Positions 50,790 through 63,272 of a stretch of 64,000 nucleotides of DNA are shown piece by piece (position 1 is the first letter of the stretch; every line of letters starts with the position of its first letter). A model generated the notes under the pieces. That model was not told where the DNA came from. It searched no databases and saw nothing but the letters and a program-made list of their open reading frames with translations. The stretch is from an uncultured Pelagibacteraceae bacterium. Its GTDB lineage: Bacteria > Pseudomonadota > Alphaproteobacteria > Pelagibacterales > Pelagibacteraceae. Where the stretch lies: assembly GCA_902533445.1 (NCBI GenBank), contig CACALX010000007.1, forward strand, positions 1 through 64,000. The letters run 5' to 3'. Both the position numbers and the translations under genes were made by a program.

Positions 50790-52082
50790 TTAGTCTCTTA
50801 TTGCGTAGGCTTTAACACCAACTTCTGCAACATCAGTTCCAAGTTTTTCAGCTTGTGAACTAATTCTAAGACCAATTGTCTGTTTTAGAACTCTGAATGT
50901 GATGTAAGAAAGTACAAAACTAAATACACATACTGAAATCACACCTGTTAACTGTGTTCCAAAATTTGTTCCTGAATTACTTAATGGAACAACTAAAGTT
51001 CCAAAGATACCAGCAAACATATGTACAGGGATTGCGCCTACAACATCATCGATTTTTTTACTTTCTAAAAACTTTGTACCAAAGTACATAATTAATGATC
51101 CTATAGCACCAATTGCAATTGCAAGTAATGGACTTGGAGTTAAAGGTTCTGCAGTAATTGCAACTAAACCTGCTAATGCTCCATTAAGCATCATTACAAT
51201 ATCTGTTTTGCCACCTAGTAATCTTGTAATAACTGCAGCAGCAACTGTACCAGCAGCTCCAGCTAAGTGAGTGTTGACTGCAATTTTACTAATTGCATTT
51301 ACATCATCAAAAGTTCCCATAGCAAGTTGACTAAAACCATTAAATCCAAACCAACCAAACCATAATAAAAAAGTTCCTAATGTAACTAAAGGTATTGAGG
51401 ATGCCGCAAAAGGTACTAAGGATTTTGTTTCCCCTTTTTTATTAAATCTTCCTTCTCTTGCACCTAAAACTATTACACCTGCTAAAGCAGCTGCTCCACC
51501 ACAAGCATGAACTAAAGTTGAACCAGCAAAATCAGAAAAACCTGAAGTTGCTAACCAACCTCCGCCCCACTGCCAGCCCATTGAAATAGGATAAATGATA
51601 CCTGCCATGATCGCTGCAAAAATAAAAAATGGCCAAATTTTAATTCTTTCTGCTACAGCACCAGATACTATTGATGCAGTTGCACATACAAACATGGTTT
51701 GGAAAAACCAATCTGAGTAATCTGAATAACCAGTTGAAAGTTCTGAAGCATCACTCCACATTGAGAATGATCCAATAAACCCGCCTTCAGGAATTCCGTA
51801 AGCTAAATTATAACCACAGAAAAAAAATATTAATGAACAAATTGCAAATTTACCAATATTCTTTGCTGCAATCGTTGAAACACTTTTAGTTGTAACTAGA
51901 CCACTCTCAAGCATACAAAAACCTGCTGCCATGAATGCAACTAAAACACCACCAAGGTAAAATCCTAGGGAATTGAAAATATATTGACCTTCAGCTGACA
52001 TTGTTGTTTCTGCTGAGGCTAAATTAATAAAGCTCAAAAATATTAATAAGCTTAATGATATTCTTTTTAAATAATTAATCAT
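50790..52082 (-). CDS. Ammonium transporter (second of a tandem pair)
   Basis: From the ATG at 52082 the protein is 430 residues, with a signal-peptide-like start MINYLKRISLSLLIFLSFIN and then the Amt fold of 11 helices. An upstream in-frame ATG (52172) would add 30 unlikely residues, and a strong AGGAGAG ribosome site precedes 52082. Channel His equivalents sit in STLVHACGGAAALAG and VGAIPVHMFAGIFGT. It imports NH4+/NH3. It is a close paralogue of the upstream amt gene, with terminators on both sides, so each gene may be controlled separately. Confidence 0.93.
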   Translation of the reverse strand: MINYLKRISLSLLIFLSFINLASAETTMSAEGQYIFNSLGFYLGGVLVAFMAAGFCMLESGLVTTKSVSTIAAKNIGKFAICSLIFFFCGYNLAYGIPEGGFIGSFSMWSDASELSTGYSDYSDWFFQTMFVCATASIVSGAVAERIKIWPFFIFAAIMAGIIYPISMGWQWGGGWLATSGFSDFAGSTLVHACGGAAALAGVIVLGAREGRFNKKGETKSLVPFAASSIPLVTLGTFLLWFGWFGFNGFSQLAMGTFDDVNAISKIAVNTHLAGAAGTVAAAVITRLLGGKTDIVMMLNGALAGLVAITAEPLTPSPLLAIAIGAIGSLIMYFGTKFLESKKIDDVVGAIPVHMFAGIFGTLVVPLSNSGTNFGTQLTGVISVCVFSFVLSYITFRVLKQTIGLRISSQAEKLGTDVAEVGVKAYAIRD

Positions 52083-52183
52083 TATCTCTCCTTTTTTTAA
52101 TGATGACGTTGTAATAAACATTAAAATTTTAAGCATTGCTGATAGGTCAAAAGAGTTATGAGAAATAAGCATATGTGAAAAAA

Positions 52184-52206
52184 AAAGGCCCCATTTCTGG
52201 GGCCTT
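52184..52206 (-). terminator. Intrinsic terminator after the upstream ammonium transporter gene
   Basis: A near-perfect stem AAAGGCCCC / GGGGCCTTT with a 5-base loop. On the minus strand it is followed by a run of T (GGGGCCTTTTTTTTTC), a textbook Rho-independent terminator. It lies about 104 bases beyond the stop of the 52310-53611 gene and about 100 bases before the start of the next amt gene. Confidence 0.85.
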
Positions 52207-52254
52207 TAGTTATTAACTAACTAGAGAGAGAGATAAGTTAATTCTTTGTTCAGA

Positions 52255-52293
52255 GGCTCTTCAATGAGATAACGACATGGAGATCGAAGAGCC
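52255..52293 (-). other. Stem-loop in the 3' region of the first ammonium transporter transcript
   Basis: An 8-bp perfect inverted repeat, GGCTCTTC at 52255-52262 and GAAGAGCC at 52286-52293, encloses a 23-base loop. It sits between the amt stop codon and the intrinsic terminator, so the mRNA would end in two successive hairpins. It may stabilise the transcript or be part of a small RNA; no known RNA family was recognised. Confidence 0.5.
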
Positions 52294-52298
52294 CCTAT

Positions 52299-52310
52299 AT
52301 TGCATGCAAT
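52299..52310. repeat. 12-bp perfect palindrome at the end of the first amt gene
   Basis: ATTGCATGCAAT is perfectly self-complementary and touches the last base of the amt stop codon at 52310. Its half sites (TTGCA/TGCAA) recall the palindrome upstream of the same gene at 53687-53703, though in a different arrangement. It could be a protein site upstream of the second amt gene (about 220 bases away) or chance. Confidence 0.35.
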
Positions 52311-53611
52311 TAGTCTCGTATTGCGTATGCTATTACACCTGTTTCGGTAACGTCTGTACCTTTGGACTCAGCTTCTTTACTTAATCTTATTCCAAAAGTA
52401 GCTTTCATAATTGAAAACACAATGTAAGACACGACAAATACAAAAATGTTAATTGATAGCACACCAATTAATTGTGCACTAAATGATGCATCAGTATTTG
52501 TTAGTGGAACTGCAAGTGTTCCCCAAATTCCAGCAAACATGTGAGCTGGAATTGCACCTACAACATCGTCAAGTTTGAAACTGAATAACAATTTAGTTCC
52601 AAATACAACAATTAAACCACCGACAGCTCCAATGAAGATTGCAGCTAATGGGGTTGGTGCTAAAGGTTCAGCAGTTACTGCAACTAATCCACCAATTGCT
52701 CCGTTTAACATTTGTACAACATCTGTTTTACCATACAACAATCTTGTAATTATAGCTGCGGCCATTACACCACCACAGGCTGCAAGATTAGTATTGATAA
52801 ATATTCCTGATACAGCGACTGCATCATCAAATGTTCCAATAGCTAATTGAGATCCACCGTTGAATCCAAACCAACCTAACCATAGGATAAATACTCCTAT
52901 TGTTACTAATGGAATTGAAGAAGCAGCAAAAGGTTTAATTGCTTTCGCTTCACCTTTGCTATCAAATCTTCCATATCTTGCACCTAACAACATTATACCA
53001 GCTAGTGCAGCTGCACCACCTGTTGAGTGTACTAAAGTTGAACCAGCGAAATCTGAGAAGCCAAGTTCTGCTAACCAGCCTCCACCCCACTGCCAACCCA
53101 TTACGATAGGATAAATAATTCCAGCTAAAATTGCTGCGAATAGAAAGAACGGCCATAGTTTAACTCTTTCAGCCATTGCTCCTGAACAAATTGAAACTGT
53201 TGTTGCACAGAAAACCATTTGGAAATACCAGTCAGAACCATCTGCATATCCAGTATCAACTGAACTTGCATCTGACCATGGAGTAAATGTTCCAATGTAT
53301 CCACCTTCTGGAATTCCATACGCTAAGTTATATCCAAACAACCAAAACATAATTCCGGCAATTGAGTAAAGACCGATGTTCTTTGCACAAATTACTGAAA
53401 CACTTTTTGAAGTTACCATACCAGATTCTAGCATCGCAAAGCCTGCTGCCATAAACATGACCATGAAACCACACATCAAAAATAGTAGTGAATTGAATAT
53501 AGCTTGTACTTCAGCAGAAACAGTTGTCTCTGCCATTCCTGCACTACTCATGTTTAGTAAAAATACTAAGCTTAGTAATGGTGCAGATATTTTCTTTATT
53601 ATTTTAGTCAT
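52310..53611 (-). CDS. Ammonium transporter (first of a tandem pair)
   Basis: A 433-residue Amt protein with a cleavable-looking signal segment (MTKIIKKISAPLLSLVFLLN, cut near residue 27) and 11 helices. The twin-His pore positions are STLVHSTGGAAALAG and VGAIPAHMFAGIWGT; other conserved parts are GFAMLESGMV and WLGWFGFNGGSQ. It imports ammonium, a key nitrogen source for SAR11. No glnK is adjacent. Upstream lies a 17-bp palindrome that may be a nitrogen-regulator site. Confidence 0.95.
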   Translation of the reverse strand: MTKIIKKISAPLLSLVFLLNMSSAGMAETTVSAEVQAIFNSLLFLMCGFMVMFMAAGFAMLESGMVTSKSVSVICAKNIGLYSIAGIMFWLFGYNLAYGIPEGGYIGTFTPWSDASSVDTGYADGSDWYFQMVFCATTVSICSGAMAERVKLWPFFLFAAILAGIIYPIVMGWQWGGGWLAELGFSDFAGSTLVHSTGGAAALAGIMLLGARYGRFDSKGEAKAIKPFAASSIPLVTIGVFILWLGWFGFNGGSQLAIGTFDDAVAVSGIFINTNLAACGGVMAAAIITRLLYGKTDVVQMLNGAIGGLVAVTAEPLAPTPLAAIFIGAVGGLIVVFGTKLLFSFKLDDVVGAIPAHMFAGIWGTLAVPLTNTDASFSAQLIGVLSINIFVFVVSYIVFSIMKATFGIRLSKEAESKGTDVTETGVIAYAIRD

Positions 53612-54189: not shown

Positions 54190-55302
54190 TTATCTAAATA
54201 AACCAAGGTCTTTTAGGTCATTAAAGGTAGTGAAAAACATCAATGATAGCAACAAAAACAAACCGATTCGAAAAAAGCCTTCTTGTGTTTTTTGAGATAA
54301 AGGCCTTCCTAAAACCTTTTCAAATGCATAAAACATTAAGTGCCCACCATCTAACATTGGTATAGGAAACAGATTAATTAACCCTAGACTTATTGAAATA
54401 TAAGCCATCATACTAATAAAAGCTAACACGCCGAAGGTTGCTACTTGCCCTGATATCTTTGCAATCCTTATAGGGCCACCAAGTTGCGAGGTATCCGCTT
54501 TACCCATGATCATTCCACCAATGTATTTTAAAGAAGAAACACTTACAAAATAGACTTCATTTGCTGCATGATACAATGCTTGTGCTGGTCCTAATTTAAC
54601 ATGATTAATTTTATCATTGTAGGCACTTAATTTTATACCAACCATTCTTTTATTAATTTTATTTCCTAAACCATCTTCACCTTCAACAATATTAGGTTTT
54701 ACTTTTAAAATTAATTCTTCGTATGAACGCTTAACTTTAAAATCTATAAAGTCACTTGTGGACATTGTGATGTATTTAGAAACTTCCATGATACTTTTAA
54801 CTTCATTGCCATCAATTTCTAAAATAATATCCTCATTTTTTAATCCACCAACCATTGCAGGACTATCTTTTTGAACTTCACTGATTACAGCAGGAGTAAA
54901 ATCTTTTCCAACAAAAGTATAAATACAAAAGAAGATTGCTAAAGCTAATAAAAAATTTGCTAAAGGACCACCAAATACAATTAAAACTCTTTGATATAAA
55001 GGTTTTAAAATAAATAACTTATCTCTTTCTTCTTCATTATACTTTTCTAAAATTTCTTCGTGATCAGCTTGTGAATAAACATTACGATCTCCAAAAAATT
55101 TGACATATCCACCTAAAGGAATTGCACATACTTTCCATCTTGTTCCGTGTTTGTCATTCCAACCAAATAATTCTTTACCAAATCCAATAGAAAAATCAGT
55201 AACCCCTACACCAAACTTTCTAGCAAAATAATAGTGTCCATATTCATGAATAAATACAACTACCAAAATAAGAATTAAAAACGGAACTATATAACTAAGC
55301 AT
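54190..55302 (-). CDS. rseP: RseP-type site-2 intramembrane metalloprotease
   Basis: A 370-residue protein. The zinc motif HEYGH lies in VVVFIHEYGHYYFARKFGVG near residue 19, the second ligand region NLFPIPMLDGGHL is near 320, and one PDZ-like domain (SEVQKDSPAMVGGLKNEDIILEIDGN) lies between. It cleaves membrane-bound anti-sigma factors or signal peptides in the inner membrane. E. coli RseP has two PDZ domains; only one is clear here. No bamA or uppS neighbours are present downstream, unlike the usual order. Confidence 0.93.
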   Translation of the reverse strand: MLSYIVPFLILILVVVFIHEYGHYYFARKFGVGVTDFSIGFGKELFGWNDKHGTRWKVCAIPLGGYVKFFGDRNVYSQADHEEILEKYNEEERDKLFILKPLYQRVLIVFGGPLANFLLALAIFFCIYTFVGKDFTPAVISEVQKDSPAMVGGLKNEDIILEIDGNEVKSIMEVSKYITMSTSDFIDFKVKRSYEELILKVKPNIVEGEDGLGNKINKRMVGIKLSAYNDKINHVKLGPAQALYHAANEVYFVSVSSLKYIGGMIMGKADTSQLGGPIRIAKISGQVATFGVLAFISMMAYISISLGLINLFPIPMLDGGHLMFYAFEKVLGRPLSQKTQEGFFRIGLFLLLSLMFFTTFNDLKDLGLFR

Positions 55303-55637: not shown

Positions 55638-56819
55638 TTAAAAAGAATAACTAGTATAAAATTTTATATTAGCTTCATCTTTAAATGAAGATTGATGAGT
55701 ATCCTTTTCTAAATTTAAAGGTTGATAAATATCTATCCCAGCTCTTAGCAATGAAAAAAACCTGCTTTCATAATTAAATGTTAAAGCACGTGTATTTTTA
55801 TCTAAATCATTTTGAAGAGAGATAAAATACTGAGTGTCTTCAATATCGTTAAGAACAAGACGAGCTCCTAAAAAAAGATCCTTTTGATAACCATGGTGCG
55901 AGTTTGAGCTACGCGTATCATATGAATATTCAACAATGTTAGCTAAATCCCAATTCTTTTCATAAATTCCATAATTGGTATGTTCAAACCCAAGAATTAA
56001 ATTTATATAATCTTCTATATTACCATTATAATCATATTCATTTTCACGATAAACAATTTCACTTTTATACAAAGTATCTTCACGTGTTGCCTGTAGATCT
56101 AAACCAAATTGAGTAATTTCTGAATACTTTGGAATAAACTTACCAGAACTTAAAACTAACGCAGGATCTTTTGAATTACCTTCATAATAAGAAAACCCAT
56201 AATCATATTCGTTAAGATAACCAGACCAACGTAATGCCATTCCAATATTATCTTTACTAGCTCCATCGGCATAAGTGTTATTGGTATCAATATTTAAAGC
56301 TAATTGAGGTCTAACTTTAGAGGTAGGATACGTATTAGTTGTTGCAGGTAAAAGAAAAAAATTTAATTCACTAGTTTCAAAATATTTTTTGACATTTATC
56401 ATTGTTTGACCTTTTTTTTCACCTTCAGCAAGACCAGTAGAAAAGTCTTTTGAATTGATGATATCTACAGGGTTATAAAATTCATTTTTTCCCCAAAAAA
56501 TTATATTATTACCAACTAAAAAATTTAAATCATTGTTTGTATATTCTAGATAAGCCTCATTAAAATCAATGTTCTCAGCTGCTTCAGGATCTGAAAACAT
56601 TGAGTTAATTTTTAATTTTCCAGATAAATTATTGTTCTCAAAAAAGAAATTATATTTGAGTGATGAAGTGTTCAGATTATTTTTTCGATCATCTCCTTCG
56701 ACATCATCAAAAAATATTGATGAACTAACTTCTATCTCACCGTATTGCTCTGTATAAGTTTCTGCGAAAGATTTAGAGCTTAAAAGAGTAAATAAAATAA
56801 AAATATATCTTATAATCAT
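55638..56819 (-). CDS. Outer-membrane beta-barrel protein of an RND/LolA-like operon
   Basis: A 393-residue protein with a signal peptide (MIIRYIFILFTLLSSKSFA, cut after residue 19), no other hydrophobic helix, and many alternating beta strands. It ends in the aromatic FYTSYSF typical of outer-membrane barrels. The segment NNIIFWGKNEFYNPVDIINSKDFSTG resembles DUF1302-like porins. As the last gene of a three-gene operon with a LolA-like protein and an RND transporter (4-base overlaps), it could be the outer-membrane exit of that system. Exact family not certain. Confidence 0.8.
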   Translation of the reverse strand: MIIRYIFILFTLLSSKSFAETYTEQYGEIEVSSSIFFDDVEGDDRKNNLNTSSLKYNFFFENNNLSGKLKINSMFSDPEAAENIDFNEAYLEYTNNDLNFLVGNNIIFWGKNEFYNPVDIINSKDFSTGLAEGEKKGQTMINVKKYFETSELNFFLLPATTNTYPTSKVRPQLALNIDTNNTYADGASKDNIGMALRWSGYLNEYDYGFSYYEGNSKDPALVLSSGKFIPKYSEITQFGLDLQATREDTLYKSEIVYRENEYDYNGNIEDYINLILGFEHTNYGIYEKNWDLANIVEYSYDTRSSNSHHGYQKDLFLGARLVLNDIEDTQYFISLQNDLDKNTRALTFNYESRFFSLLRAGIDIYQPLNLEKDTHQSSFKDEANIKFYTSYSF

Positions 56820-57619
56820 CTAGCCATTCTGGCTAATTTCTCAGGTCTAAAATCATTCAAAGATAAGTTTGTTTGAAATTGATAATTTTCCCAAGCAATC
56901 ACAGTCGATTTTCCTGTTTGAAGATTAGTCATTTCTAAGGTATCTGCTCTCCAAAATTTATCTAAGTATTTTTGATAACCCTTGAAATGTAGTTCTTTTT
57001 CTAAATCCCCTCTTCGATTATAAAATTTAACTGATTGGTATAATAATTCATCAGTATCAACATAAATTATTCTTTTAGAATAACCTGATTTTTTATTTTT
57101 AGGTGTTGCTTCAATTAAATGACATATAAGAGAAGCCTCTGTTAGACACGGCCCATCTTCAAGCCAAGTAAATGTATAATCTTCTGGCTCATCTGTTGAT
57201 AAATCTTCATAAGAAAATTCAGAAGAAACAAATTTACCAGTACGATTAGATGAGGAAATTCTTTTTACTCTTTTTAAAGCTGGAAGGTATAACCATTGAT
57301 CATCATCTTTAGGCTCAATATTTGCATGAGTTAAAAGAGAAGTGCCCTTTACATCTCTTGGTTCTGTAAAAACGATAATACTTTTATCTCCTAAGGTATC
57401 CTCTAATTCTTCGAAGATTAAATTTTTAAATTTTCTAACACTTTCGTTTCCAGATTTGTCTTTTAAAACCATCTGACCTTCAACTGTGCTATCGACAAAA
57501 CCATTATCTAAAGCAATACTTTTTTCAATAATTTCTAGACCTTTTTCTTCATTGGTTTGAGCAAATGAAGATGTGCACCAAAATATCAGGGTTAAACAAA
57601 TTGATATTATAGATTTCAT
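56816..57619 (-). CDS. LolA-like outer membrane lipoprotein-sorting protein
   Basis: A 267-residue periplasmic protein with a signal peptide (to about residue 20). The block RDVKGTSLLTHANIEPKDDDQWLYLPALKRVKRISSSN followed by GKFVSSEFSYEDLS is the signature of the LolA-like PF17131 family found next to RND/MMPL transporters. The fold is an open beta-barrel that can hold a lipid. It probably shuttles a lipid or lipoprotein between the RND pump and the outer-membrane partner. It overlaps both neighbours by 4 bases. Confidence 0.88.
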   Translation of the reverse strand: MKSIISICLTLIFWCTSSFAQTNEEKGLEIIEKSIALDNGFVDSTVEGQMVLKDKSGNESVRKFKNLIFEELEDTLGDKSIIVFTEPRDVKGTSLLTHANIEPKDDDQWLYLPALKRVKRISSSNRTGKFVSSEFSYEDLSTDEPEDYTFTWLEDGPCLTEASLICHLIEATPKNKKSGYSKRIIYVDTDELLYQSVKFYNRRGDLEKELHFKGYQKYLDKFWRADTLEMTNLQTGKSTVIAWENYQFQTNLSLNDFRPEKLARMAR

Positions 57620-59922
57620 GATGATGCTCTCCTTTTTGTTTTAAAGTTATCAATCATAATTAATATTGGTGGTAACAGTAAATAATCCACAATGAGGGCA
57701 AAAACAACTGTGATTGCTGTAAGCTGAGCCATGTCTTTATTAACAGTAAATCCAGATTGAGCTAAAACACAAAAACCTAAAAACAAACCTATCGTTGTTG
57801 TCGTTAGTGCCATTCCTACTTTTTGAAAAGCATCACGAACACTGTCTTCTGGTGACTTTCCATTTTTTCTTGCCTTTGCATATTTCAACATGAAGTGAAC
57901 AGAGTCGTCGACAACTATTCCAAGTGTCATCGCTACTACAATAGATACGGCTAAGGTTACACTTCCTGTATAATATCCCCATAACCCAAAAGCCATAGCA
58001 GCTGGTAATAAATTAGGAATTAAACTCATCAATCCGTATTTAATATTTCTAATAACCAGCAAAATAATAAATGAGATACCAATAAGAGCAAAGCCTGTCC
58101 CCTTTAACATCGCTGGAACATCTCTTGAAGAGATTTGTGAAAATACTTGTGATGGACCGGTTGATTTTGACATTAACTCCGGTGCATTCTCTTTAAACCA
58201 CCCTTGAATTGTTTTATCTAAATCTAAGAATTCTTTTGTTGTCGCGTTTGCAACATTTGCTGTTACTCTAAGAGCAGATTTATCAACGTTGATTTGATCT
58301 GTTAGATCTAAACCATAACCAAGTGAAAGTTCATATAAAAATAAATATTGAGCTGCTTCAAGCTCAGAAGAAGGAATTTTATAAAATGATTGATCATCAT
58401 TATTAAAGTTCTGGTTCAATCTTTTAACGACATCCGTATAAGATCTTACACTAGTGACCTTTGGTTGGTTTCGCATAAATTCAACAAGATCATTAACTTT
58501 CTGTAGATATTCTGGGTCATTGATCCCATTTTCTTTTCCAGAATTGATTGAGTATTCTAATGCATTAAGCCCACCAAATTTTTCTTCGTAATAATCAATT
58601 GATTGTCTTAGTTCATATTTTTTGTCGAAATATCTTAAAAAATCGTCCTCTAAAGATATTTTAGTAATTCCAAAAATCAGTACTGCTGCAATAGTAGCTG
58701 TTGAAAATAAAAGAAAATTTTTTCTTTTAATAACAAACTCTGCTAATCCAGACATGCTTTTATCCATATAAGCTTGCGAACTAATTTTTTTCATTGGTAA
58801 TAAACTGATCAATGCTGGAAGCATTGTAAGAGTATAAAAAAGAGCAGCTATTACACCGACAAAGACAATATTTCCAAGTTGTCTAAAAGGAGGTGAAATA
58901 GAAAAATTCAAAGATAAAAATCCGATAGCTGTTGTAAGACAAGCAACAGTGATTGCAGGTCCATGATCAATAATCGCTGTTCTCACCCACTCATTTCTAT
59001 CTGGAGTAATCATCATTGTTTGACGAACTGATGATAAGATATGAACTGCACTAGCAACTGTTAAAGTCATTACCATCAACGGTGCAACAACGGTTGCATT
59101 ATTAATATTCGTTCCAGACCAACCTAAAGCACCCAAAGAAGATCCAGCACATAAAATGATAATGATAAATATTAAACCAACTCCAAAAATACTTCTTAAA
59201 ATGATTGCAACTGAAACTAATGTAACAACAATCATCAATGGAGTTAGAGTAGTAGAGTCGTCCTGACCAGACTCGCTGTATTGGTTATTAAGCGGTACAA
59301 AACCAACCATCCTAACTTCTATGTTTGGATTGTTCGCCTCAAATTTTTCTTTTAATTTTTTAGCCTCTCCCATAACAAAAGGCACCTCAACAATGGCGTT
59401 TTTGCCTGGAAGTCGAAACAGAACATTAACCTGTGTGATTGAATTATCTTTATTGATAAAAGTATTTTTGAGTTCAATTCGAGAGTTAGCTACCTTTTCT
59501 GCGTTTGAGACATCTTCAGGTGAAATATTATCAATATCGGTAATCAAATCTTCCACAACAAGACTATCCTCTTCGGCATAACTATTTTGATAGTTAGTTA
59601 AAGAGTTTACAGTTCTTATATAAGGAAGTAGCCAAGCTTCTTCTGTTAATTCACCTACCGCTTTCAAAGTTTCAGCACTAAAAACATTTTTGTCTTTTGG
59701 AGATATAACAAAAATTAAGTTATCATCTTTTGAATACGCTGCCTCAAAATTATCAAGAGCAATACGGTCAGGATTATTTTTATCAAAAAAAACTCTAGCG
59801 TCTGTATCGAAATTAAGGTTTGGCGCACCCGCCATCAACCCTAATGCAACCAAAAAACCAAATATAATAACAACAATTCTTCTTTTAAGAACAAAGTCTG
59901 CAAGTGCTGGAAAAAAATTCAT
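57616..59922 (-). CDS. RND superfamily transporter, MMPL/HpnN-like
   Basis: A 768-residue inner-membrane protein with 12 helices in two repeats, each with a large periplasmic loop (about residues 40-220 and 420-610). The second repeat keeps the MMPL proton-relay motif GIVVDDSVHFMLKYAKARK; in the first the equivalent reads TVASAVHILSSVRQ, with the Asp pair lost. This is a single-protein RND, similar to lipid and hopanoid transporters. It is the first gene of the operon and probably powers transfer of a lipid to the LolA-like protein. Confidence 0.9.
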   Translation of the reverse strand: MNFFPALADFVLKRRIVVIIFGFLVALGLMAGAPNLNFDTDARVFFDKNNPDRIALDNFEAAYSKDDNLIFVISPKDKNVFSAETLKAVGELTEEAWLLPYIRTVNSLTNYQNSYAEEDSLVVEDLITDIDNISPEDVSNAEKVANSRIELKNTFINKDNSITQVNVLFRLPGKNAIVEVPFVMGEAKKLKEKFEANNPNIEVRMVGFVPLNNQYSESGQDDSTTLTPLMIVVTLVSVAIILRSIFGVGLIFIIIILCAGSSLGALGWSGTNINNATVVAPLMVMTLTVASAVHILSSVRQTMMITPDRNEWVRTAIIDHGPAITVACLTTAIGFLSLNFSISPPFRQLGNIVFVGVIAALFYTLTMLPALISLLPMKKISSQAYMDKSMSGLAEFVIKRKNFLLFSTATIAAVLIFGITKISLEDDFLRYFDKKYELRQSIDYYEEKFGGLNALEYSINSGKENGINDPEYLQKVNDLVEFMRNQPKVTSVRSYTDVVKRLNQNFNNDDQSFYKIPSSELEAAQYLFLYELSLGYGLDLTDQINVDKSALRVTANVANATTKEFLDLDKTIQGWFKENAPELMSKSTGPSQVFSQISSRDVPAMLKGTGFALIGISFIILLVIRNIKYGLMSLIPNLLPAAMAFGLWGYYTGSVTLAVSIVVAMTLGIVVDDSVHFMLKYAKARKNGKSPEDSVRDAFQKVGMALTTTTIGLFLGFCVLAQSGFTVNKDMAQLTAITVVFALIVDYLLLPPILIMIDNFKTKRRASS

Positions 59923-60160: not shown

Positions 60161-60709
60161 TTATTTATTTATTTTAATTTTCTTATAATCTTTCATCCAT
60201 TTGTCAAAGATCCTTATTGCATCATCCATATCTTTAGTTTTGTTAGGATGATTTTTTGCTCTTCCAAGCATAGTTGCAATAACATTTACTTGATACTTAA
60301 TTGATCTTTTTTTAATCGCTTCAACTGTAAAAAGCGCCTTCTCTTTATTCTTAAAACCTAAACCATGTAAAGTTGTCTCAGGTCTATAATCAGAAAATAA
60401 TGAAAGATTTAAAGGTTTAAAACTTTTATCTTTAATCATTTTATTCATTGGCATTTTATCAACCAAAGTAAATATCTTTTTAAAATTTATTGTATCAAAC
60501 CTAGCTTTTTCAGTTCCATCAAAGCCAATTAAACTAACACTAAATTTTTTAGCTTTGTCTAATCTTGTAACTAATTTGATAAATTGTTTGTGAAATTCTT
60601 TTATGTGTTTTTGATAAATATTTTTTGAATTTTTATACTCTTCATTTGTGTAATTTGGAGTATTTAAAACTAACAATCTACATTTCCATATATATTTTTT
60701 AAAATTCAT
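60161..60709 (-). CDS. DUF4174-like protein with a C-terminal extension
   Basis: A 182-residue, Lys-rich soluble protein. The first 90 residues (KKYIWKCRLLVLNTPNYTNEE ... KKFSVSLIGFDGTEKARFD) have the IWK-RLLVL and LIG-x-DG-x-K pattern of DUF4174, a thioredoxin-like family. The second part (TTLHGLGFKNKEKALFTVEAIKKRSIKYQVNVIATMLGRAKNHPNKTKDMDDAIRIFDKW) is helical and not recognised with certainty. There is only one Cys (residue 10). Function unknown. The assignment of the first part is by eye and tentative. Confidence 0.7.
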   Translation of the reverse strand: MNFKKYIWKCRLLVLNTPNYTNEEYKNSKNIYQKHIKEFHKQFIKLVTRLDKAKKFSVSLIGFDGTEKARFDTINFKKIFTLVDKMPMNKMIKDKSFKPLNLSLFSDYRPETTLHGLGFKNKEKALFTVEAIKKRSIKYQVNVIATMLGRAKNHPNKTKDMDDAIRIFDKWMKDYKKIKINK

Positions 60710-61151: not shown

Positions 61152-62573
61152 ATGAAAAAATTAATTTATATTATTCTTTTTGTTTTTTTTACTAACCTTG
61201 TAAAAGCAAATGAGTTTTTTGAGGATATTACATATCAAATTTTAGATAATCCTCCTCGTTTAAGTTATGGAATTTCAGTAACTGATATCAATCAAGATGA
61301 TGATTATGAATTTATAGTTACTGGATTTGGATTTAATAATTTAGCCTTAAAATATAGAAAAGGTGTTTTATTAAACAAAGTAGATCAGAAAATATTCTTA
61401 GATAAAGATCGTAGAACAATTGGGGTTGCTGCTTGCGATATTGATCAAGATGGATTTGAAGAAATTTACTTTCTAAATACTGATACTTATAGTGGTGAAA
61501 AAAAATACTCAGATCGATTACTCGACATCAATGACAATAAATTTATTGATTTATTTGAACTTGAAATCAATCAAGAAAATCTGAACCTTACAGCAGGTCG
61601 TTCTGTAGTTTGTGTTGATCGAAATGGAGATGGAGCATACGGAATTTACGTTGCAAATTATGGTGGTCCGACCAGATTTTATGAAAAAGAAGGACGGAGA
61701 ATTGTTGATAAAGCAAAACAGCTTGGCATAGATAAAATTACAGGTGGAAGAGCTGTTATATCTGGAAACATATTGTCAGGTCGATCAGATATATTTGCAG
61801 CAAACGAGAGAGGTGAAAACTTTCTGTATTATAATCAAGAAGGAGAATTTGTTGAACTTACAAAAGATTATCAAGTTGAAGATCTTTTTGAAAATGGAAG
61901 AGGAACTGCTCTAAGTGATATTTTATACCGTGGTCAATTAGATATCTTAACTTCGAATTGGGAAGGACCTCACCGTGCCTTTGTATTAGATGGTAATCAA
62001 TTTAAAGATATTGCAGATCAAAACTTTAGTGAACCTTCAAGAATTAGAACTGTTATCTCAGCAGATTTTGATAACGATGGTTATGACGAAGTATTTATGA
62101 ATAATATTGGAGAACCTAACAAGTTATTTAAAATTTTAGATAATGGAGTTTTTCAACCCATTAAAATCAATAATGCATTAGAGACTAATGGTTTAGGTAC
62201 TGGTGCAGCTGTTGCTGATATAGATAACGATGGAATTCTTGAATTACTTATTTCTCACGGAGAGTCTGGTTATCAACCATTAACCCTCTATAAGGCTAAT
62301 ATAAAAGATACTAATTACATAAGGATTAAACCTCTTAACAAGTTTGGAGCTCCTGCAAGAGGTGCAACAGTTACTCTTAAATCTAATTTGAGAACACATT
62401 CAAAAACCATTGATGCTGGATCTGGATATTTATGTCAAATGGAACCAGTGGCACATTATGGAGTTAGAAAAAATGAAAAAAACCTTAAATTTGAGGTTAC
62501 TTGGACAAATGGCAAAACTGATAATTATGTTATTAAAAATTTAAACCAGACAATAGAGGTAAAACAAAAATAA
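61152..62573 (+). CDS. Exported FG-GAP/VCBS repeat protein with ASPIC/UnbV-like C terminus
   Basis: A 473-residue protein with a signal peptide (MKKLIYIILFVFFTNLVKA). It carries repeated calcium-binding-like D-x-D-x-D-G motifs: TDINQDDDYEF, CDIDQDGFEEIY, VDRNGDGAYGIY, ADFDNDGYDEVFM and ADIDNDGILELL. These mark blades of an FG-GAP beta-propeller. The C-terminal GAPARGATVTLKSNLRTHSKTIDAGSGYLCQMEPVAHYG is an ASPIC/UnbV domain. Such proteins are secreted or surface-bound. It pairs with the Cys-rich gene 3 bases downstream. Confidence 0.88.
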   Translation: MKKLIYIILFVFFTNLVKANEFFEDITYQILDNPPRLSYGISVTDINQDDDYEFIVTGFGFNNLALKYRKGVLLNKVDQKIFLDKDRRTIGVAACDIDQDGFEEIYFLNTDTYSGEKKYSDRLLDINDNKFIDLFELEINQENLNLTAGRSVVCVDRNGDGAYGIYVANYGGPTRFYEKEGRRIVDKAKQLGIDKITGGRAVISGNILSGRSDIFAANERGENFLYYNQEGEFVELTKDYQVEDLFENGRGTALSDILYRGQLDILTSNWEGPHRAFVLDGNQFKDIADQNFSEPSRIRTVISADFDNDGYDEVFMNNIGEPNKLFKILDNGVFQPIKINNALETNGLGTGAAVADIDNDGILELLISHGESGYQPLTLYKANIKDTNYIRIKPLNKFGAPARGATVTLKSNLRTHSKTIDAGSGYLCQMEPVAHYGVRKNEKNLKFEVTWTNGKTDNYVIKNLNQTIEVKQK

Positions 62574-62576
62574 TTA

Positions 62577-63272
62577 ATGAAAAAAAATTTAATTATCATT
62601 CTAACTTTATTTTTTACTTTATTTGCTAATACAAATTCTTTTGCTAATGAAAGAAATTATTATGAGGAATTAATTAGTAATTGGTTAGAAATATTTCCAG
62701 ACAAAAATAGAAATGCTGCAGGTCCTAAGTTTTTTAGTCATATTATAAAGAAAAAAGATTTAACTTATAAAGATTTTGTCGAGTTCAATAAATTATATTG
62801 TGCCGTATCAGGTTCCTTAATCGATCCAAATGCCAGACCTCAAAAAGTTTATATGAGTGAAGTTGAAACTGACAAAAAAATTTGTGGTAATTACTATCAA
62901 TGTTGTATTCCTTGTTCCTGTGATGTTATGAAGTATGCAAAAGTCGAAAAAATGAAACATCAATTTATTGATATTGAAAAAGAATTTTATGTAATAACAA
63001 TTAAAAGTCCCTGTCAAAAAAGAGATTTTCCAAGATATGTGAACAGAGATTACTTTTGTGATGGTGAAAACTTAGCAGAAGACCAAGTGATAGTTCTTAA
63101 TGGTAGACTGGTTATAGGATTATATCATGAGGGTAAATTATGTGATCAAGCAACTATTGATGTAGTAGATAATGATGAAGTTACAGGTAGATTTTGTGAA
63201 TTTAGAAACAATACCCCATTGGATCAATTACAAGGCGGTATGGGTGATATATTTATCAAACTAGCAAGATAA
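62577..63272 (+). CDS. Exported Cys-rich protein of unknown function
   Basis: A 231-residue protein with a signal peptide (to about residue 23, ANTNSFA). The mature part carries at least nine Cys, several in CGNYYQCCIPCSCDVMK (about residues 100-116), others in SPCQKRD, DYFCDG, GKLCDQ and GRFCEFR. The cluster looks like a metal- or disulfide-rich site. No family recognised. Its start lies 3 bases after the FG-GAP/UnbV gene stop, so the two are probably one functional unit in the periplasm or on the surface. Confidence 0.8.
   Translation: MKKNLIIILTLFFTLFANTNSFANERNYYEELISNWLEIFPDKNRNAAGPKFFSHIIKKKDLTYKDFVEFNKLYCAVSGSLIDPNARPQKVYMSEVETDKKICGNYYQCCIPCSCDVMKYAKVEKMKHQFIDIEKEFYVITIKSPCQKRDFPRYVNRDYFCDGENLAEDQVIVLNGRLVIGLYHEGKLCDQATIDVVDNDEVTGRFCEFRNNTPLDQLQGGMGDIFIKLAR

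What the first reader, a model, noticed from the sequence alone, without database searches (positions are those of the whole stretch)
55638..59922. Three-gene RND - LolA-like - beta-barrel operon as an envelope-spanning lipid route
Seen: an MMPL/HpnN-like RND pump, a PF17131 LolA-like periplasmic protein and an outer-membrane barrel, joined by 4-base overlaps. Each could handle one compartment, together moving a lipid or lipoprotein from inner to outer membrane. The RND keeps the DD proton relay only in its second half. The cargo is unknown.
Basis: partly seen in the sequence, partly recalled or inferred. Interest (0 to 1): 0.6.

Follow-up and report, generated by a model that had tools for sequence, protein, structure and literature searches.

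The report
Three-gene exporter for greasy molecules
A rare, movable three-gene cassette in an ocean SAR11 bacterium most likely forms a route that pumps a still unknown fatty or oily molecule from the inner membrane through the outer membrane; relatives occur across many bacteria, and two have been tied to lipopeptide production or to solvent-like terpenes.

Summary
RND, LolA-like (PF17131) and barrel genes lie in that order with two 4-base overlaps, and the RND keeps its Asp pair only in the second half. The genome is SAR11-like. Only 2 of 121 genomes of its genus carry the cassette, and its SAR11 copies share no neighbouring genes outside one close pair.

The triad is a real unit. In a phylum survey all 40 strong barrel matches lie within about 1 kb of a LolA-like gene. 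RND and LolA-like are fused in seven alphaproteobacteria and one Acinetobacter record. The three gene trees largely agree.

Canonical LolA is a separate gene in 7 of 7 near-complete SAR11 relatives, so lipoprotein sorting is unlikely. The carrier model matches P. gingivalis LolA3, which binds LolB only weakly. The barrel model resembles OprD/Occ and AlgE and is a remote DUF1302 relative.

Best reading: a compact variant of the DUF1302-DUF1329-RND cassette (Castellaniella AmeABCD; Acinetobacter A1S_0116-0117 in the acinetin-505 operon) that moves a hydrophobic or amphiphilic small molecule outward. Cargo and direction in SAR11 are inferred. It is a new variant of a partly described kind.

The parts
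57616..59922 (-). RND/MMPL transporter, 768 aa; two periplasmic loops; TM10 VVDDSVHF (D672, D673, H676); TM4 VASAVHIL lacks the Asp (S291)
   Evidence: ORF; PF03176 125 bits, TIGR00921 158.8 bits below its cut-off 351.9; motif columns in 100 relatives
56816..57619 (-). LolA-like periplasmic carrier, 267 aa, signal-peptide-like N-terminus (SFA/QT) and no lipobox Cys; LolA3-type
   Evidence: PF17131 194 bits, DUF1329 69 bits; 46% identical to 3bk5; model pLDDT 92.2; VIA Z 33.1 to 3bk5, 30.8 to LolA3 9tp6
55638..56819 (-). Outer-membrane beta-barrel, 393 aa, C-terminal Phe, conserved FWGKNEFYNPVDIIN segment; OprD/Occ- and AlgE-like fold; remote DUF1302 relative
   Evidence: Model pLDDT 91.8; VIA Z about 23 to Occ/OprD and 22 to AlgE; hhalign 97-98.5% to DUF1302 proteins next to distant LolA-like genes
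57616..57619 (-). ATGA overlap RND/LolA-like
56816..56819 (-). ATGA overlap LolA-like/barrel
54190..55302 (-). RseP-type PDZ metalloprotease, last gene of the conserved ammonium transporter-HU-RseP block; the cassette begins just beyond it (boundary, not part of the system)
   Evidence: synteny with G098, G012, G022, G004

Best explanation
The three genes encode one envelope-spanning export route for a hydrophobic or amphiphilic small molecule. Inferred steps: the RND protein takes the molecule from the inner membrane or its periplasmic face using the proton gradient, relying on the Asp pair of TM10. The LolA3-type protein, docked at or near the RND, shields the greasy part across the periplasm. 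The barrel, of the OprD/AlgE fold class, lets it into or through the outer membrane. It is a compact, mobile variant of the DUF1302-DUF1329-RND cassette. Shown: gene order, overlaps, near-obligate association of barrel and carrier, RND-carrier fusions, congruent trees, folds, and lateral mobility. Inferred: outward direction, cargo class and physical contacts. Unknown: the cargo in SAR11.
For: Association: RND adjacent in 69 of 76 and barrel in 62 of 72 named loci with enough flank, both in 55 of 68; all 40 strong barrels in 397 genomes lie within about 1 kb of a LolA-like gene. Fusions: seven alphaproteobacterial RND-LolA reading frames that keep a signal-peptide-like segment as an extra hydrophobic stretch, and a 1216-aa Acinetobacter RND-LolA followed by the barrel. 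Trees: distance correlation RND-LolA 0.92, LolA-barrel 0.79, RND-barrel 0.76, 0 of 999 permutations reaching them. Regulation: 20 of 23 same-strand upstream genes in relatives are TetR repressors. Cargo leads: the Acinetobacter pair matches the A1S_0112-0119 operon for the lipopeptide acinetin-505 (PMC5376624); a Sulfitobacter plasmid copy follows a type I polyketide synthase; deletion of AmeABCD lowers monoterpene tolerance and raises Nile Red influx (PMC6394551). Mobility: SAR11 cassettes share the three genes and no flanks, apart from the close pair L099/L100. Canonical LolA is separate in SAR11.
Against: No experiment exists for this branch. The window has no TetR and no biosynthetic gene beside it. 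The barrel does not reach Pfam DUF1302, there is no AmeC, and the TM4 Asp needed in standard RND relays is missing. A water-filled Occ/AlgE-type barrel is not an obvious exit for a very greasy molecule. Thalassolituus relatives were read as alkane transport into the cell (PMC6304351). Some carrier loci lack the RND or the barrel. The barrel tree has 10-15 strong conflicts with the other two, so some barrel swapping occurs.
Confidence: 0.6

Rival explanations
1. Anterograde transport of an endogenous membrane lipid to the outer membrane, as HpnN is thought to do for hopanoids or BstABC for sterols. RND loads the carrier, the barrel helps insertion.
For: LolA/LolB fold with hydrophobic groove in the LolA3 homologue (PMC13103446); RND belongs to the lipid-moving MMPL/HpnN superfamily; BstABC is a precedent for one protein per compartment (PMC10942540).
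Against: Present in 2 of 121 genus members and mobile without linked lipid genes; TetR control in relatives suggests induction by a compound; the barrel is porin/exporter-like.
Confidence: 0.2
2. Uptake of hydrophobic nutrients: the barrel admits the molecule, the carrier ferries it inward, and the RND works with or against import.
For: Thalassolituus TOL_3187 (MMPL plus LolA-like) and TOL_3188 (porin-like) rise on n-C28 alkane (PMC6304351); best fold matches include Occ uptake channels and a BenF-like porin.
Against: RND pumps of known direction export (general knowledge); the Acinetobacter copy lies in a biosynthetic operon whose product is found in the medium (PMC5376624); ameABCD deletion increases dye influx (PMC6394551).
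Confidence: 0.12
3. A dedicated lipoprotein-sorting branch in which the LolA-like protein carries a lipoprotein to the outer membrane.
For: Pfam and GO names; LolA/LolB fold.
Against: Separate canonical LolA in 7 of 7 relatives; LolA3 lacks LolA's Arg and LolB's exposed Leu and binds LolB only weakly (PMC13103446); no lipoprotein gene is shared among the flanks.
Confidence: 0.05

Closest known systems
Castellaniella defragrans AmeABCD (DUF1302 barrel, DUF1329 LolA-superfamily, COG4447, HAE3 RND)
   Same: Inner-membrane RND, LolA-fold periplasmic protein and outer-membrane barrel in one operon; conserved cassette (PMC6394551); the window LolA-like protein passes the DUF1329 cut-off and the barrel is remotely DUF1302-related
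   Different: Gene order differs (barrel first), AmeB is 451 aa, a fourth periplasmic protein AmeC is present; window carrier 267 aa, barrel 393 aa, no AmeC. Ame sequences themselves were not compared here
Acinetobacter A1S_0116-A1S_0117 in the acinetin-505 operon
   Same: RND and LolA-like fused in one protein, next gene a barrel of the same superfamily (285, 132 and 49 bits); the paper notes A1S_0116 as RND and A1S_0117 as porin-related (PMC5376624)
   Different: Linked to NRPS genes; RND and carrier fused; far in sequence
Bacteroidota MMPL-LolA3-DUF1302 operons
   Same: MMPL-LolA-like-DUF1302 order seen in Prevotella nigrescens; fold of P. gingivalis LolA3 (9tp6) matches at Z 30.8
   Different: Two ABC transporter genes are linked; such operons are strongly induced by low iron in P. 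gingivalis and Prevotella intermedia (PMC10434189)
Thalassolituus TOL_3187/TOL_3188
   Same: MMPL plus LolA-like in one protein and an adjacent porin-like protein (PMC6304351)
   Different: Induced by n-C28 alkane; sequence not compared here
HpnN and BstABC lipid transport systems
   Same: MMPL-type RND with a lipid cargo; Bst has one protein per compartment (PMC10942540)
   Different: HpnN and BstA scores far below cut-offs; Bst periplasmic and outer-membrane parts belong to other families

Membership tests
PF17131 LolA_like | Profile score above the gathering cut-off | tested here: met
   193.6 bits against 30
PF07044 DUF1329 | Profile score above the gathering cut-off | tested here: met
   69 bits against 23.1, but the best stretch covers only profile 266-367 of 368
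LolA3 family NF053579 | Curated cut-off 83 bits | tested here: not met
   17.8 bits; fold nevertheless Z 30.8 to LolA3
Canonical LolA (Lol pathway) | PF03548 profile match | tested here: not met
   No PF03548 hit for the window protein; separate PF03548 gene in 7 of 7 relatives
MMPL/RND superfamily | PF03176 match in both halves | tested here: met
   125 bits, two stretches
HAE3 subfamily TIGR00921 | Curated cut-off 351.9 bits | tested here: not met
   158.8 bits, its best NCBIfam match
HpnN hopanoid transporter | TIGR03480 cut-off 751.85, NF052374 cut-off 1100 | tested here: not met
   108.5 and 49.6 bits
DUF1302 (PF06980) barrels | Profile score above the gathering cut-off 23.2 | tested here: not met
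   No hit in any of 38 barrels of this family; remote link through DUF1302 proteins, hhalign 97-98.5%
AmeABCD cassette | Four-gene set including AmeC (COG4447) | tested here: not met
   Only three genes in the window and in SAR11 copies
AmeABCD cassette | RND, LolA-superfamily protein and outer-membrane barrel co-encoded | tested here: met
Tripartite RND efflux pump (HAE1 with MFP and TolC) | Membrane-fusion protein and TolC-type channel encoded with the pump | tested here: not met
   The cassette holds only RND, carrier and barrel and shares no flanks; barrel best matches Occ/OprD and AlgE
Envelope-spanning exporter | Physical contact of RND, carrier and barrel | not testable with these tools
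   Fusions and co-inheritance are indirect evidence only

The most novel reading that the evidence does not exclude
The RND-LolA3-barrel triad is a distinct, widespread class of trans-envelope exporter in which a dedicated lipid-carrier chaperone, in places covalently part of the pump, replaces the membrane-fusion protein and TolC. SAR11 strains acquire it as a three-gene module, running on a one-sided (TM10-only) proton relay, to shed or display a specific amphiphile.
Probability: 0.3. Interest if true: 0.75.

Novelty: new variant of a known kind. Interest (0 to 1): 0.45.

Why it matters
It links threads that the papers read here treat apart: the orphan LolA3 protein whose partner is unknown, the presumed acinetin-505 exporter of Acinetobacter, terpene tolerance in Castellaniella, and an alkane-induced pair in Thalassolituus. 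If they are one machine, LolA3's missing partners are its neighbouring RND pump and barrel, and the cargo question can be tested in easily grown bacteria. It would also show SAR11, with some of the smallest free-living genomes, picking up a complete envelope transport module.

Tried and rejected
Lipoprotein sorting: rejected as the main reading because canonical LolA is separate in relatives and LolA3 binds LolB only weakly (PMC13103446). The own-genome search for PF03548 found none, but the genome is 87% complete, so no weight was put on it. Hopanoid transport: HpnN models far below cut-off. Phage or virus origin: no relative in viral contigs; the two 'phage' records with a hit are Acinetobacter contigs carrying the NRPS region, bolA and tRNA genes, probably host DNA. 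Own promoter: the consensus scan gave fewer matches than shuffles, no conclusion. Terminator: no convincing site at the 3' end. Among the listed structure matches of the barrel no FadL-, LptD- or TolC-type entry appears, which excludes nothing. Literature searches for a paper describing the triad as such found only the Castellaniella, Thalassolituus, Acinetobacter and Bacteroidota items.
Full report
Observation. Three minus-strand genes lie at the stated coordinates in the order RND (57616-59922), LolA-like (56816-57619), barrel (55638-56819), joined by two ATGA overlaps. Pfam gives MMPL for the first and LolA_like plus a partial DUF1329 match for the second; the third has no family. NCBIfam places the RND nearest HAE3 (TIGR00921) but far below cut-off, with HpnN lower still. 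TM10 carries D672-D673, while the TM4 position is S291. In an alignment of 100 triad pumps D672 is invariant, D673 is present in 91 and the TM4 Asp in 72. Ser or Gly at TM4 is shared by all SAR11 copies examined and the fusion-bearing alphaproteobacteria, and His by the sister family of the order.

Host and mobility. The nearest named record is an uncultured Pelagibacteraceae genome (92% for the LolA-like protein), so the window is SAR11-like (inference). Among 121 genomes of the genus only two carry the LolA-like gene, although many of those genomes are incomplete. In another family of the same order the barrel was found in 12 of 16 genomes, and the full triad in all 11 loci read. SAR11 and near relatives (window, L017, L098-L102) share the three genes at 49-99% identity; no flanking gene is shared, except between the near-identical pair L099/L100. 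In the window the cassette starts just past a conserved block ending in RseP. The same block is present in four other genomes, three of which lack the cassette, and is followed there by other genes. In the RND and LolA-like trees the window clade is sister to Neomegalonema-type sequences, not to the sister family of its own order. Lateral transfer is the simplest reading.

Is the triad a unit? Phylum survey (397 genomes): 88 have a LolA-like match and 44 a barrel match. All 40 barrels above 400 bits lie within about 1 kb of a LolA-like gene, by comparing the two coordinate lists. Of 41 close LolA-like loci in the gene-order analysis, 34 show contiguous RND>LolA>barrel. In 80 named loci spread over Pseudomonadota, Nitrospirota, Gemmatimonadota, Latescibacterota, Planctomycetota and others, RND is adjacent in 69 of 76, barrel in 62 of 72 and both in 55 of 68 with enough flank. 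These loci were chosen by similarity to the window's carrier, so the counts describe this subfamily. For distant carriers (under 250 bits) the strict order breaks down, but several have LolA>RND>DUF1302 or RND>LolA>unknown protein. Seven alphaproteobacterial loci have RND and LolA-like in one reading frame, with the former signal peptide kept as an extra hydrophobic segment; whether it is later cleaved is unknown. Patristic distances correlate at 0.92 (RND-LolA), 0.79 and 0.76, and strong split conflicts are few for RND-LolA (6) and more for the barrel (10-15). Upstream same-strand neighbours are TetR regulators in 20 of 23 cases; the window has none.

Structures. The carrier model (pLDDT 92.2) matches 3bk5 from Vibrio at Z 33.1, P. 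gingivalis LolA3 at 30.8, a Desulfovibrio DUF1329 protein at 30.3, P. gingivalis LolB at 15.2 and LolA proteins at about 10-12.7. The LolA3 paper reports a hydrophobic groove, absence of the LolA Arg and LolB Leu, only weak LolB binding, and suggests a separate function (PMC13103446). The barrel model (pLDDT 91.8) matches OprD/Occ channels at Z about 23 and AlgE at about 22, barrels known to have 18 strands (general knowledge). I did not count strands in coordinates. Foldseek alone ranked other porins and AlgE first with modest TM-scores.

Link to known systems. Barrels beside distant carriers (L081, L082, L088, L095) pass the DUF1302 cut-off, and these plus L091 align to the window-type barrel family at hhalign probability 97-98.5%, sharing a WG...D..NP motif. 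The window triad is therefore a remote, compact counterpart of DUF1302-DUF1329-RND cassettes such as AmeABCD. Deletion of ameABCD lowered monoterpene tolerance and raised Nile Red influx (PMC6394551). An Acinetobacter record carries a 1216-aa RND-LolA fusion and a barrel between NRPS and phosphopantetheinyl-transferase genes. That layout corresponds to A1S_0112-0119; deletion of its gene A1S_0114 abolishes the lipopeptide acinetin-505, and A1S_0116 is described as RND and A1S_0117 (424 aa) as porin-related (PMC5376624). The identification with A1S numbers rests on gene order and sizes. A Sulfitobacter plasmid copy follows a type I PKS. A Prevotella plasmid has MMPL-LolA-like-DUF1302 behind two ABC genes, like the low-iron-induced operons reported in P. 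gingivalis and P. intermedia (PMC10434189). That PGN0947 (LolA3) is the carrier of the P. gingivalis operon is an inference not checked here.

Mechanism and confidence. Most likely the triad exports a hydrophobic or amphiphilic small molecule: RND as proton-driven loader, LolA3-type carrier as shield, barrel as exit. The lack of linked biosynthetic genes and the patchy distribution in SAR11 fit either a generally available cellular amphiphile or protection against an outside compound. Direction is inferred from relatives. The TM4 change suggests a relay running on TM10 alone; this is testable but unproven.

Novelty. The Castellaniella authors already proposed a new HAE3 subfamily with periplasmic and outer-membrane partners. 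What is added here is the three-gene variant without AmeC, its breadth, the fusions, the tight barrel association, presence as a mobile cassette in SAR11, and the connection to LolA3 and acinetin-505. I found no paper in the library that unites these, but subscription papers are not held. Hence 'new variant of a known kind'.

Noticed in passing
window 50790-53611: Two tandem ammonium-transporter genes; the relatives G012 and G022 have only the second one at this place, so the first looks like an accessory copy shared with G098.
   Followed up: partly
window 60161-60709: DUF4174-like gene upstream of the cassette, found in G098 (89% identity) but not in G012, G004, G009 or G022: also accessory, at a different distance from the cassette there.
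   Followed up: partly
window 61152-63272: FG-GAP/ASPIC-UnbV repeat protein followed 3 bases later by a 231-aa protein without any family.
   Followed up: no
G000 contig C13 7273-9210: A second MMPL-type RND gene (804-aa frame) elsewhere in the genome, while the genome holds only one PF17131 gene, the one in this cassette.
   Followed up: no
L064, L069, L078: Close LolA-like genes with no RND or barrel nearby but behind genes of about 306-315 and 374-376 aa: perhaps the carrier works with another transporter type there.
   Followed up: no
L193 (Pseudoalteromonas plasmid, NZ_CP118497.1): RND and LolA-like genes are followed directly by gamma-mobile-trio recombinase genes where the barrel would be expected.
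   Followed up: no
G429 C1 590097-590734: Broken barrel remnant with two stop codons and no LolA-like gene nearby, the only sizeable barrel-family piece found apart.
   Followed up: no
L080 and sister-family loci L018-L026: TM4 Asp replaced by Ser or His in several separate lineages while the first TM10 Asp is invariant.
   Followed up: partly
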